This document shows positions 21,247 through 25,312 of a stretch of DNA of 43,465 nucleotides, one piece after another. The DNA lies in contig NZ_JABRWJ010000022.1 of assembly GCF_013266755.1 (NCBI RefSeq), positions 1 through 43,465 on the forward strand, in the 5' to 3' direction. The translations under genes were made by a program, and so were the position numbers. Position 1 is the stretch's first letter, and each line of letters starts with the position of its first letter. A model generated the notes under the pieces. That model made no database searches. It was not told the DNA's origin and saw nothing but the letters and a program-made list of their open reading frames with translations. This DNA comes from Pseudaquabacterium terrae (GTDB lineage: Bacteria > Pseudomonadota > Gammaproteobacteria > Burkholderiales > Burkholderiaceae_C).

Positions 21247-21285
21247 GCGGCCGGCGCCTGTTGATGGGTGTCGGGACCGGCGCCA

Positions 21286-21444
21286 CTCCTCGTCGTGCGA
21301 GGCCACGATCAACGCGCCCTCGAAGCCTTGCAGCGCCTCCTGCAGCCCCGTGGTATCCAGATCGAGGTGATTCGTCGGCTCATGGTTGGCGATCAACAGT
21401 CCTGCGTAGAAGCGAGGCGACCGTTCAAGACTGAACTGAGACAG
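21286..21444 (-). pseudogene. Remnant of an ABC-F type ATPase gene
   Basis: On the minus strand a short stretch (21286-21444) reads LSQFSLERSPRFYAG-LLIANHEPTNHLDL, then DTTGLQEALQGFEGALIVASHDE. This corresponds to the second-half signature, Walker B and H-loop of ABC-F proteins (LSGG...LLLLDEPTNHLDL...EALQ.Y.GALLVVSHDE). The LSGGE signature is corrupted, LLDEP has become ANHEP, and nothing else of the roughly 530-aa protein remains. It marks the left edge of the accessory island and is the scar of a deletion or insertion event. Confidence 0.7.
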
Positions 21445-21555: not shown

Positions 21556-21732
21556 ATGCCAAGCAAGCCAAAGCCACCGCCGGCGCCAAGCCCACCGCTC
21601 GACGACCCGCAGCAATCAAAGCAGTTCGAAGACGCGGCGCGCGAGTTAGAAGCGGATGGGAATGAAAGTGCGTTTCACCGCGCTCTAGACGCCGTAGTCC
21701 CGCCCGCGAATAGGAAGGATCGCAAGTCATAA
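21556..21732 (+). CDS. Small proline-rich/acidic protein, 58 aa, unknown
   Basis: MPSKPKPPPAPSPPLDDPQQSKQ..., then FEDAARELEADGNESAFHRALDAVVPP and a basic tail. The pattern 'DP.QSK.F...A.E..AD....AF..A...VVP' resembles a group of small conserved proteins often seen in accessory regions, as far as I remember; I cannot name a family. No clear Shine-Dalgarno. It ends in convergent overlap of six bases with the DUF3800 gene. It may be a small partner of the neighbouring DUF3800 protein. Confidence 0.55.
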   Translation: MPSKPKPPPAPSPPLDDPQQSKQFEDAARELEADGNESAFHRALDAVVPPANRKDRKS

Positions 21733-22620
21733 GGGCGGCAATTCTCCTGTGGCTACGGCCTGCTCAATCCAATTCAGAGCCTGAGAGGATGGTCTATCAC
21801 TCAGTAGCTCAAACTGGGCCACTCTGGCGTAGTAGCGCTCCAAAACTGGCCCCGTCACATGCCAACCACGTCGGATTCGCGAGGCGATGTTTGTTCCGCT
21901 GGTTTTTCGTAGGTTGTCGCCAAGTAGCGCACGCAAAGAGCCGCGCAGTCTGGTTTCCCCCTTTTCGTCGATAGGAAACTTTGCGGCGTCCCGCTCGACA
22001 TGTTTGGCCCATTCCCAAGCATATATGTCTGCCATCTCGAATAGCCTCGAATCTGCTGCATCCAAGATCGCATATGAGCGCATTCCGTATAGCTGTTGAG
22101 CCATACCTCGATGGGACCGAATGTGGTTGGTGAAGGCCGCGGAGTCGCCCTGATCCCCGTCACCGAACTCGAAGAAGTATGCAATGTCAGCGTTGCGGGT
22201 CAAGCTGCGCATGGCAGCCATAGCAAGATGGCAGCACACCGCATACGGAGTCCTTAGGCCGCCCAAGATCACTTTGGAGTCTGTATCGGCTGCTGCTGGC
22301 GCCAATGCTGCGAGCTCGGCCGCAGTCACCGAAACGGCAACACCGAACGAAGCCCAGCGATTGATGATCGGGACCGAGGCCTCAATGTGCGCTTTGGTCT
22401 TTGTGCTCGACCAGCCCTTGAAGTCGCCTTGTGGTGGGTTTGCGCTGAGGTCGGTCATGTGACATTGCGTCTCACCCCAGACGCGCTTCCAATCTCGTGT
22501 AGCCTTTTTGGCGGCAACAGACCCAAACGCGAACCCGGCCACGCAGAAACTTCCACCGTCCCTCTTGCTGGCATCGAAGTAGGCTTCAAGCACGACTGCG
22601 TAACCTCCGTCCCACGGCAT
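21727..22620 (-). CDS. DUF3800 protein (predicted RNase-H-fold nuclease-like)
   Basis: About 297 aa from the ATG at 22620; an upstream ATG at 22692 would add 24 hydrophobic residues. It begins VVLEAYFDASKRDGGSFCVAGFAF, the first strand with the conserved acidic residue of DUF3800. Later motifs are CHMTDLSAN, AYFFEFGDGDQGD and the family's end motif ADSRLFEMADIYAWEWAKHVE. DUF3800 proteins have a RNase-H-like fold and are common in phage-defence and mobile regions; biochemical function is mostly unknown. Base composition is plainly less GC-rich than the flanking catabolic genes. It is divergent from the Cap15-like gene. Confidence 0.82.
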   Translation of the reverse strand: MPWDGGYAVVLEAYFDASKRDGGSFCVAGFAFGSVAAKKATRDWKRVWGETQCHMTDLSANPPQGDFKGWSSTKTKAHIEASVPIINRWASFGVAVSVTAAELAALAPAAADTDSKVILGGLRTPYAVCCHLAMAAMRSLTRNADIAYFFEFGDGDQGDSAAFTNHIRSHRGMAQQLYGMRSYAILDAADSRLFEMADIYAWEWAKHVERDAAKFPIDEKGETRLRGSLRALLGDNLRKTSGTNIASRIRRGWHVTGPVLERYYARVAQFELLSDRPSSQALNWIEQAVATGELPPL

Positions 22621-22766
22621 CACGCGGTCTAGTAGCCAGCAGAAGTGCAGAAGAGTCCGCCTCATCAACCAGATCGGGGTCGCAAGGAGCAATCACAGCC
22701 TACTCCTTGGGTACGCAAAGTACAATATGCTCAAACTTTAGCGGTCATCATTTAAGGGGCGCACCG
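22621..22766. promoter_or_regulatory. Divergent promoter region DUF3800 / Cap15-like
   Basis: A 146-bp AT-richer spacer between the two divergent genes. TACAAT at 22721-22726 is a good -10 candidate for the plus-strand Cap15-like gene; I see no strong -35 at the right distance. AAGGGG (22754-22759) is the ribosome-binding site before the ATG at 22767. Confidence 0.4.
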
Positions 22767-23441
22767 ATGACTCCAGTCCAGGACACGAAGCGATTCAACA
22801 TCTACCTCTACGGCAGCATCGTAGTGGCTGTGTGGTTCGCGGTCGTCGCCTCCAACGCGCACCTGGCGTTTCCGGACCCGGTAGTAGCCCTTAGAGGTCT
22901 CACCCTCGGCGGAGCGGTCGCGTACCTCCTGTCCATCGCAATGGATCGTTGGCTGTGGCGACTGCCTCTCTTGCAAAGAATCAATGGCGTTCCGGACATC
23001 TCTGGCCGATGGGAGGGCTGGTTCTGGAATACCCTCGGGCAACAGTGGCTTCCAAATGCCCAGGAAATTACACAACACTCATGGCGCGTCTCGTTCCATT
23101 CGTGGGGTCCTGTTAACGAGTCGTCAACCATCAGTGCTGCGCTTTTAACAGATGGAACCGGGAAGATAAAGCTCGCATCTGTATATTCGACAGAGGTCAT
23201 TTCCGGCGCTTCCGAGCCACACATGGGAGCCTCTCACCTGTCGCTGTCTAGTATGGGTCAAGTGACTCGCCTTTTTGGAACGTATTGGACAAACCGGCGA
23301 CGTGACGATGGAACGAGGGGGCAGTACGGATACATAAGGCTGATGCGTACCGACAAGAAGGCACTCGGCGGCCTCAGTTTCGATGAAAAGAACTGGGCAA
23401 TGCCGAAGCCGATCGAGCCGCCCGAACCAATGCGCAGCTAG
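22767..23441 (+). CDS. Cap15-like two-TM beta-barrel protein (orphan CBASS-type effector)
   Basis: 224 aa. Two hydrophobic segments (about 12-29 and 37-58) are followed by a beta-rich domain (77-195): PDISGRWEGWF, AQEITQHSWRVSFHSWG, ESSTISAALL, HMGASHLSLSSMGQVTRLFGTYWTNRR, GYIRLMR. This is the pattern of the SMODS-associated 2TM beta-strand effector, Cap15 (G.W.G, Q.W..I, S.S, H.GT..L, L.G.Y.T.R, G.I.L.R), which in CBASS binds a cyclic dinucleotide and disrupts the inner membrane. No CD-NTase or other CBASS gene is in the island, so the trigger is unknown. The ATG at 22767 has AAGGGG in front. Composition suggests transfer. Confidence 0.78.
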   Translation: MTPVQDTKRFNIYLYGSIVVAVWFAVVASNAHLAFPDPVVALRGLTLGGAVAYLLSIAMDRWLWRLPLLQRINGVPDISGRWEGWFWNTLGQQWLPNAQEITQHSWRVSFHSWGPVNESSTISAALLTDGTGKIKLASVYSTEVISGASEPHMGASHLSLSSMGQVTRLFGTYWTNRRRDDGTRGQYGYIRLMRTDKKALGGLSFDEKNWAMPKPIEPPEPMRS

Positions 23442-23773: not shown

Positions 23774-25312
23774 ATGGCGATCGAGAACGCGCAGCGGCAT
23801 CTTCACCTCAAGCGCGCAAGTGCGCGGGCCCAGCGGCTTGACCTTGAACAACGCGTCTTGCGCGCGCTGGCCGAAGCGCTGAAGGCGAGGTTCGGCAGCA
23901 CGTTCGCGCAGCAGTTGCAGCATCAGCAGCGAATTCAGCTGCAGCAAGTCAGGCACCCCCTGCAGCTGTTCGACGAACTCTCCGTGAACTGGCCGAAGGC
24001 CCTGCGGGACTACCTGCTGGAGAACTGGCAGGCCTTTGCCGACGTGCAGCAGCAACAACAGCAACAGCAACAGGAGCAGCAGCAGCAACAACAGCAGCAG
24101 CAGCAGGAGGAGGAGGAAGAAGAGGAGGAGCTGCGAAGCCACCGACAGCGCCGGCATGAGCATGGGCACCAGCGTCAGCAGCAACAGGAGCAACAACAGC
24201 AACCGCAGCAACGGCAGCAACCGCGGCAACTGCAGCGGCAGGAGCCCCAAGCGCCGCGGGAAAGTGAATCGGAATTGGCGCGAATCGCTCTCGAAAGGAT
24301 TCTGAATCGAGAGCTCGAGCTCTCGAGAATGCTAGTTCAAGCGAACGACGACGTGGAAGCGCTTGCCGCAGACGTCGAGTCCAAGTCGGAACCTGTGCGC
24401 CAATCGGATCAGCCGGCAGTCCTCGAAGAACACCTTCAATTCTCCCTGTGGAGCCCCCACGCTGTCGCAGTCGGTCAAACGTTTGTGCTCGACTTTTGGG
24501 TGCATACGGCGTCACAGGCTACAAAGGTGCAGGCCCTCATGAATCGCATGGGGCAATCGGCAGTCGGCAAGCCTTGCGACAGCGTGACATCGCGTGCGGC
24601 AGCGCTGACAGTTCGCTTGCTGTGTCCGGCGCTCGTGATCGAGCAGGACTTGCAACTGCTGACCTGGACCGGGACGGAGAACTCGGCGTCGTTCACCTGC
24701 CGAGCCGATTCCGGTTCATGGGGGGGCACCGTGCAAGGCTACTTCGACGTACGCGCAGGCGGCCTCAGCTTGAGCCGACTTCCCTTTGAACTGAAACTCA
24801 CGGCAGGGCCGCAATTGCAGCAGCAGCAGCAAGTGCCGTGGCAGCAGCAGCAACAACAACAGCAGCAGTTTCAAAAGATGTCGTGGACGAGCTTCGCACG
24901 CGGAACGGCTTTCGCTTCTTACTCCAGCGAAGACCGAATCGATGTGCTGCGCTGCACAGAGGGTCTAAAGAAGGGGGCTCCGTTCATGGATGTATATCTC
25001 GATATTGTCAAGCTCCGGTCCGGCGACGACTGGGAACGCACCTTGATGGCCTACATCCGGACAAGCGACGTCTTCTATCTCTTTTGGTCTCCTTCCGCAG
25101 CCAAGTCGAATTGGGTCGATCGCGAGTGGCGGTACGCGTACCAAGAGCGTGGTCTCGACTTCATCGATCCGTTCCCGTTGGAAGACCCTCGGCTCGTTCC
25201 TCCGCCCACGGAACTGGAAAGACTCCATTTCAATAGCGCATATCTCAGCCACATCAATGCAGAGAAGTACATCAAGGAACGTATGCGCGCGATTCCCCAA
25301 ACTGGTCACTGA
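23774..25312 (+). CDS. TIR-domain protein with polyglutamine/polyglutamate tracts
   Basis: 512 aa. Order: helical Gln/Arg-rich N-terminus (1-90); Q92-100, E101, Q102-111, then E112-119; a second Q-rich stretch (135-156); a helical linker; a beta-sandwich-like domain (220-342, FSLWSPHAVAVGQTFVLDFWVH ... GGLSLSRLPFELKL); a third Q tract (about 348-365); and a C-terminal TIR domain (376-495). TIR motifs: AFASYSSEDR, VYLDIVKLRSGDDW, SDVFYLFWSPSAAKSNWVDREWR, DPFPLEDPRLVPPP. Glu451 in the W-V-x-x-E motif is the likely NADase glutamate. The beta-sandwich/TIR combination is known in bacteria; the polyQ tracts are not usual. Probably an abortive-infection NADase; the trigger is unknown. Confidence 0.82.
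   Translation: MAIENAQRHLHLKRASARAQRLDLEQRVLRALAEALKARFGSTFAQQLQHQQRIQLQQVRHPLQLFDELSVNWPKALRDYLLENWQAFADVQQQQQQQQQEQQQQQQQQQQEEEEEEEELRSHRQRRHEHGHQRQQQQEQQQQPQQRQQPRQLQRQEPQAPRESESELARIALERILNRELELSRMLVQANDDVEALAADVESKSEPVRQSDQPAVLEEHLQFSLWSPHAVAVGQTFVLDFWVHTASQATKVQALMNRMGQSAVGKPCDSVTSRAAALTVRLLCPALVIEQDLQLLTWTGTENSASFTCRADSGSWGGTVQGYFDVRAGGLSLSRLPFELKLTAGPQLQQQQQVPWQQQQQQQQQFQKMSWTSFARGTAFASYSSEDRIDVLRCTEGLKKGAPFMDVYLDIVKLRSGDDWERTLMAYIRTSDVFYLFWSPSAAKSNWVDREWRYAYQERGLDFIDPFPLEDPRLVPPPTELERLHFNSAYLSHINAEKYIKERMRAIPQTGH
24047..24130 (+). repeat. CAG/CAA then GAG/GAA trinucleotide tract
   Basis: Nineteen glutamine codons interrupted by one Glu codon are followed by eight Glu codons, all as mixed CAG/CAA and GAG/GAA triplets. 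Similar Q-rich stretches follow at about 24176-24241 and 24815-24868 in the same gene. Because the unit is three bases, length changes would alter the protein but not the frame. Mixed codons argue that slippage has been limited or that the tract is selected at protein level. Confidence 0.85.

What the first reader, a model, noticed from the sequence alone, without database searches (positions are those of the whole stretch)
23774..25312. TIR protein with polyglutamine and polyglutamate tracts
Nineteen Gln interrupted by one Glu, followed by eight Glu, plus two further Q-rich stretches surround a beta-sandwich domain and a C-terminal TIR with a candidate catalytic Glu451. PolyQ of this length is rare in bacteria. 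PolyQ promotes coiled-coil or condensate assembly, and TIR NADases are activated by self-assembly. The tract may set the threshold for oligomerisation, a control principle not described for bacterial TIR defence as far as I know.
Basis: partly seen in the sequence, partly recalled or inferred. Interest (0 to 1): 0.75.

Follow-up and report, generated by a model that had tools for sequence, protein, structure and literature searches.

The report
Bacterial TIR immune protein with polyglutamine
A bacterial protein of the immune TIR kind, probably acquired from elsewhere, carries long glutamine runs that its closest known relatives in other bacteria also have, in varying length, which hints that the runs help it assemble, although no function has been tested.

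Summary
Window 23774-25312 (+) encodes 512 aa with Q9-E-Q10-E8 (residues 92-119), two more Q-rich stretches, a beta-sandwich and a C-terminal TIR. Glu451 is invariant in 56 of 56 aligned proteins (window plus 55 of 80 loci). The window and its three nearest relatives found (L014 SAR324, L015 Bryobacterales, L017 an unnamed MAG) form a 100/100 clade, and all four have Q tracts (longest run 10, 7, 28; L015 at least 7 beside an assembly gap). Three members of a distant clade with the same cassette have 14, 41 and 14 Q before the beta-sandwich; sisters do not. In 80 loci (840 kb) all 8 (CAR)>=6 runs lie in TIR genes of 6 loci; 74 loci have none. AlphaFold puts the main tract in one 57-residue helix. 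Most likely: a stand-alone TIR NADase-type effector whose N-terminal helices and Q-rich region serve self-association or spacing. NADase activity, assembly and defence are inferred; a length-set threshold is untested; a tolerated linker repeat is a serious rival.

The parts
23774..25312 (+). Q-rich beta-sandwich-TIR protein, 512 aa (P0001)
   Evidence: GC3 0.70 against 0.90 in two flanking host genes
23774..24043 (+). N-terminal helical domain (aa 1-90), shared with L014, L017 and (first 44 aa) L015
23990..24046 (+). WP-containing Leu/aromatic helix (aa 73-91) before the Q tract; WP to first Q run: 19 residues in the window and in L017; in L014 a Q3 at 24 and its Q7 at 48; not readable in L015
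24047..24106 (+). main polyQ tract Q9-E-Q10 (aa 92-111), mixed codons (13 CAG, 6 CAA)
24107..24130 (+). polyE run (aa 112-119), absent from L014 and L017
24170..24241 (+). second Q-rich stretch (aa 133-156)
24260..24385 (+). predicted helix aa 163-204
   Evidence: block pLDDT 63-76
24425..24802 (+). beta-sandwich domain aa 218-343, no Pfam family
   Evidence: isolated model pLDDT 94, pTM 0.87
24818..24868 (+). third Q-rich stretch (aa 349-365) between beta-sandwich and TIR; not in L014 or L017
24905..25291 (+). TIR domain aa 378-506
25124..25126 (+). codon of Glu451, candidate catalytic Glu
   Evidence: (56 of 56)
22707..23441 (+). neighbour, not shown to be part of the system: Cap15-like two-TM protein (likely start ATG 22767)
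   Evidence: (30.7 bits, just under the cut-off of 31.2)

Best explanation
A probably horizontally acquired, stand-alone TIR effector of the NADase kind, most likely an abortive-infection protein. Shown by sequence or model: N-terminal helical domain, Q-rich region, beta-sandwich, C-terminal TIR with the conserved Glu. Inferred: on an unknown trigger the N-terminal part brings subunits together, the TIRs pair head to tail, the composite active site forms and NAD+ is cleaved. The polyQ tract, which in the window and L017 starts 19 residues after a conserved WP in a Leu/aromatic helix, most likely prolongs that helix and contributes to self-association or adjustable spacing; its length is free to vary. 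That length tunes a threshold is a hypothesis.
For: TIR_2 match and Glu451 invariant in 56 of 56. Four of four members of the 100/100 clade have Q tracts, though L014 and L017 are only 42% and 38% identical to the window protein. Same distance from WP in the window and L017. Q tracts also in three members of a distant clade, directly before the same cassette. All 8 (CAR)>=6 runs in 840 kb fall in TIR genes. Mixed CAG/CAA codons argue against a fresh slippage product. AlphaFold: one helix 85-141, block pLDDT 87-94 over 91-130. The androgen receptor's polyQ forms a helix whose helicity grows with length (PMC6497633, abstract). TIR activation by clustering (PMC12847820, Discussion).
Against: No activity, assembly or defence data exist for this protein. 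AlphaFold tends to draw polyQ as helix (recalled), and only three rows cover the tract. L014 has only Q3 near the WP helix, its Q7 lies 48 residues on, with prolines between. 74 of 80 cassette loci have no CAR run of 6 or more (four of the 80 genes are cut at the 5' end). No shared neighbour was seen around L014, L015 and L017 by reading the ORF lists, without a family search.
Confidence: 0.4

Rival explanations
1. The Q tracts are tolerated repeat expansions in unconstrained linkers; the TIR effector works the same without them.
For: Relatives of L050, L066 and L068 have Q-free, Pro-rich linkers in the same place. Longest runs vary from 7 to 41. The window's polyE and third Q stretch are not in L014 or L017, and L014's Q7 is not at the same distance from the WP helix. 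The same host genome has a Q8 run in another gene, a DnaE2-like polymerase by my reading.
Against: Presence in 4 of 4 diverged members, mixed codons, and no CAR run of 6 or more in the flanking DNA of the 80 loci.
Confidence: 0.36
2. The Q/E/R-rich region is a stiff single alpha-helix that keeps the N-terminal domain and the TIR at a set distance; it does not self-associate.
For: One 57-residue helix predicted; E8 is followed by an Arg/His-rich stretch that could pair with it, and no hydrophobic heptads are visible in 92-141 (by eye).
Against: E8 is not in L014 or L017, and L014 has prolines there.
Confidence: 0.15
3. The TIR makes a nucleotide signal for the upstream Cap15-like membrane protein, a Thoeris-like pair.
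For: Same strand, 332 bp apart, both in the low-GC stretch; no SMODS CD-NTase match in the genome to serve the Cap15-like protein.
Against: No tblastn hit of the Cap15-like protein in L014, L015, L017 or the other loci then held (a single diverged query). No operon-tight spacing.
Confidence: 0.05

Closest known systems
Bacterial TIR NADase effectors activated by clustering (SpbK of Bacillus subtilis, TIR-STING, TIR-SAVED)
   Same: C-terminal TIR with the catalytic-type Glu after an N-terminal part that could oligomerise
   Different: beta-sandwich instead of STING, SAVED or the SpbK N-domain; polyQ tracts; trigger unknown
CHAT/TPR-S proteins with the same beta-sandwich-TIR (L066; close kin L068, L050)
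   Same: same cassette; polyQ in the linker before the beta-sandwich
   Different: up to about 2,180 aa; CHAT and TPR-S shown by Pfam for L066 and L051 only; the window's N-terminal domain was not found there by tblastn (which also missed L017); sister proteins lack polyQ
Eukaryotic polyQ proteins (androgen receptor, huntingtin)
   Same: Q tract directly after a Leu-rich helix, length variable (the eukaryotic side recalled, and PMC6497633 abstract)
   Different: bacterial, interrupted by Glu, coupled to a TIR; resemblance only
ZU5-UPA proteins (UNC5b, ankyrin-B)
   Same: best Foldseek hit of the full model is UNC5b (3g5b, E 2.8e-6); ankyrin-B 4d8o is fourth
   Different: weak (TM 0.22/0.29, rmsd 10.3), aligned range not reported, glycosidase chains rank second and third, no Pfam ZU5 or UPA match

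Membership tests
TIR domain (PF13676) | score above the curated cut-off | tested here: met
   45.8 against 28 bits; 56 of 56 family members scanned match at E <= 0.001
TIR NADase | conserved catalytic Glu in helix C | tested here: met
   Glu451 invariant in 56 of 56; the assignment to the catalytic Glu is by recalled motif
TIR NADase | NAD+ cleavage | not testable with these tools
   needs enzyme assay
TIR NADase | activation by self-association | not testable with these tools
   needs biophysics
Thoeris (ThsB) | ThsB_TIR model PF08937 above cut-off | tested here: not met
   14.6 against 21.2 bits; PADLOC ThsB model gives a weak 18.5 bits, E 2.7e-4
Thoeris (ThsB) | adjacent ThsA effector (SIR2 or macro) | tested here: not met
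   none among the other 6 ORFs scanned
CBASS (through the Cap15-like neighbour) | CD-NTase in the genome | tested here: not met
   PF18144 0 matches in G000; other CD-NTase models not tried
ZU5/UPA domain | Pfam match | tested here: not met
   not among the 21 families listed for 44 members of A5 at E <= 1
ZU5/UPA domain | same fold, searched with the isolated domain | not tested
   fold search machine busy

The most novel reading that the evidence does not exclude
Bacterial TIR immune effectors have recruited, perhaps more than once, length-variable polyglutamine tracts next to a beta-sandwich-TIR cassette as a nucleation or spacing element, so that repeat number, a fast-mutating quantity, adjusts how readily the death enzyme assembles.
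Probability: 0.22. Interest if true: 0.85.

Novelty: new variant of a known kind. Interest (0 to 1): 0.55.

Why it matters
PolyQ is studied mostly as a eukaryotic and disease feature. A bacterial TIR family in which Q runs of 7 to 41 recur beside the effector cassette gives a simple, genetically tractable system to ask whether polyQ helps or hinders ordered assembly of an enzyme whose activity needs clustering. It also points to a widespread beta-sandwich-TIR cassette, whose beta-sandwich has no Pfam family, fused in various bacteria to kinases, LRR, HEAT, CHAT/TPR-S, CARDB and other domains.

Tried and rejected
Chance or frame artefact: rejected. Fresh pure-CAG slippage: not favoured, codons are mixed. 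Phage or plasmid carriage: viral-contig scans found no relative, phages none, plasmids one record, matching residues 208-494 only. Strain comparison of tract length: no close strain held; the genus search (9 of 21 genomes matched) gave one other full cassette, the FHA-beta-sandwich-TIR protein of G143, and otherwise TIR-only matches. The sampled family search gave 7 of 399 genomes, own included.

More members of the Q clade: 398 genomes of the window's phylum, 347 of the phylum and 257 of the order of the Bryobacterales genome, 52 of the phylum of the SAR324 genome and 347 of the order of the NGEE_A genome were searched; the sets overlap in part. Besides the known members, six genomes matched at E <= 1e-30 (G680, G1492, G1703, G1625, G1624, G1706), all in the cassette part of the profile only, and none of their six loci has a CAR run of 6 or more. 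Empty insertion site: among the listed matches of the 7.8 kb stretch no other genus member showed both flanks together (list cut). Promoter and terminator scan at chance level; no Rfam match. Fisher tests (p about 1e-6) treat related loci as independent and use a rough gene number, so I lean on the tree.

Rows dropped or corrected: L021 was read in the wrong frame by my script and left out of alignments; six ORFs misread there were redone; alignments A4 and A6 hold 55 of the 80 loci each. One search labelled the L015 tract 'elsewhere' because my ORF began after the assembly gap; searches show it in frame with the TIR gene, so I count it in.

Full report
Observation. The ORF at 23774-25312 (+) is real and reads as described: Q9-E-Q10-E8 at residues 92-119, further Q-rich stretches at 133-156 and 349-365, a predicted beta-sandwich at 218-343 and a TIR at 378-506. 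Its TIR scores 45.8 bits against a cut-off of 28. In 20,000 shuffles of the protein no Q run of 9 arose. Three of the four separate (CAR)>=8 tracts of the 8.04 Mb genome are in this gene.

Setting. The gene lies in a stretch of about 57-61% GC, while the host DNA on either side is mostly 67-73%. Its GC3 is 0.70 against 0.90 in the flanking binding-protein and dehydrogenase genes; Q codons are 31 CAA and 48 CAG here, 2 and 22, and 1 and 15, in those two genes. Acquisition from elsewhere is inferred from this and from the sporadic distribution. The gene has no tight operon partner. The upstream same-strand gene resembles Cap15-type two-TM CBASS effectors (Pfam just under its cut-off, PADLOC E 5.9e-18), but the genome has no SMODS match, and tblastn with that protein hit none of the other loci then held.

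Family. A profile scan of named genome contigs matched 148 stretches, 98 of them confirmed, and the best 80 were kept as loci; its two peptide patterns came from the TIR, not from Q tracts. The cassette of beta-sandwich plus TIR occurs in many phyla. Of 56 proteins scanned (P0001 and the longest ORFs of 55 of the 80 loci), all 56 match TIR_2; 4 match a kinase, 3 LRR, 2 CHAT, 2 TPR-S, 2 HEAT, single ones CoaE, CARDB, patatin, RyR and others (25 of 36 families are shown). FHA fusions were seen by eye in L028 and L011. The beta-sandwich has no convincing Pfam match in 44 members (best E 0.0019 for one member), and the best sequence match to solved structures was E 0.016. Glu451, Trp438, Ser439, Ser445 and Val448 are invariant in 56 of 56.

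Q tracts in the family. In the 80 loci (839,698 bp, about 164 kb of it in the TIR genes) the 8 (CAR)>=6 runs are all in the TIR genes of six loci: L014, L015, L017, L050, L066, L068; 74 of 80 loci have none, four of the 80 genes being cut at the 5' end. Six further cassette loci from other searches, and the six longer loci from the window's own family, have none either. The tree of 60 cassettes puts the window with L014, L015 and L017 in a 100/100 clade, all four with Q tracts, and the other three in a distant clade; at least 3 gains or losses are needed, which may be one gain and two losses.

In the first clade the longest runs are 10 (window), 7 (L014) and 28 (L017), and in L015 seven Q remain beside an assembly gap that falls at the tract. 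The tract starts 19 residues after the WP of a preceding helix in the window and in L017; in L014 only a Q3 lies near (24 residues) and the Q7 is 48 residues away; in L015 this cannot be read. In the distant clade runs of 14, 41 and 14 sit in the linker just before the beta-sandwich, where sister proteins have Q-free, Pro-rich sequence. CHAT and TPR-S were shown by Pfam for L066 and L051 of that clade.

Against a strong claim: the polyE run and the third Q stretch are in neither of the two relatives readable there (L014, L017), most cassette proteins have no Q tract, and the same genome has an unrelated Q8 run in what reads as a DnaE2-like polymerase. Of the other (CAR)>=8 tracts that I looked at in the genus, several are not in the Q frame of an evident gene (judged by eye).

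Structure. AlphaFold with 56 rows (mean pLDDT 82, pTM 0.56) draws residues 85-141 as one helix, with block means of 87-94 over 91-130, and the beta-sandwich and most of the TIR with high confidence. Only three rows cover the tract, so its helix is weak evidence. The isolated beta-sandwich models well (pLDDT 94, pTM 0.87). Foldseek with the full model ranks UNC5b (ZU5-UPA-death domain) first and ankyrin-B fourth, with low TM scores and no aligned range; glycosidases rank second and third, and CARDB, sialidase and SPARTA TIR chains also appear. I treat the ZU5/UPA resemblance as a lead only; the search with the isolated domain could not be run.

Mechanism. TIR NADases are active when TIR domains associate, and extra domains usually drive this (PMC12847820, Discussion read; passages). 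The androgen receptor's Q tract forms a helix whose helicity grows with length (PMC6497633, abstract). Putting these beside the anatomy, I think a role of the Q-rich region in self-association or spacing most likely, at about 0.40, with a tolerated linker repeat at about 0.36. Nucleation barriers in bacterial death-fold domains have been measured by DAmFRET (PMC10055258, passages), which offers a direct assay.

Literature. Low-complexity regions are described as not common in bacteria (PMC8004648, passages). Searches for polyglutamine with TIR domain, bacteria and NADase, poly-glutamine with TIR, condensate and phage defense and polyglutamine with anti-phage returned no paper on this subject, judged by title and abstract beginning, in the open-licence library. 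The passages seen of the two conflict-system papers (PMC7159879, PMC8195603) do not describe this architecture; I did not read them in full.

Noticed in passing
22707-23441 (+): Cap15-like two-TM protein without any SMODS match in the genome.
   Followed up: partly
21285-21381: Short remnant with 80-81% identity to a place in the own genome and one in G143; by my reading an ABC-F ATPase fragment.
   Followed up: partly
21727-22692 (-): 321-aa ORF in the low-GC stretch without Pfam, PADLOC, NCBIfam or PHROG match; DUF3800-like by eye only.
   Followed up: no
L159 (G000:C34:1500-6500), tract at about 2392: DnaE2-like polymerase (by eye) with an in-frame Q3-E-Q8 stretch in the same host genome.
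   Followed up: partly
L066:283-6822: 2,180-aa protein with DUF7379, an LCAT/hydrolase-like region, CHAT, TPR-S, Q41, beta-sandwich and TIR.
   Followed up: partly
L015:3132-3144: Run of N (assembly gap) at the Q tract, as repeats can cause.
   Followed up: yes
G000, seven further places: Seven other matches at E <= 1e-5 in the host genome, aligned to the TIR part of the profile only.
   Followed up: no
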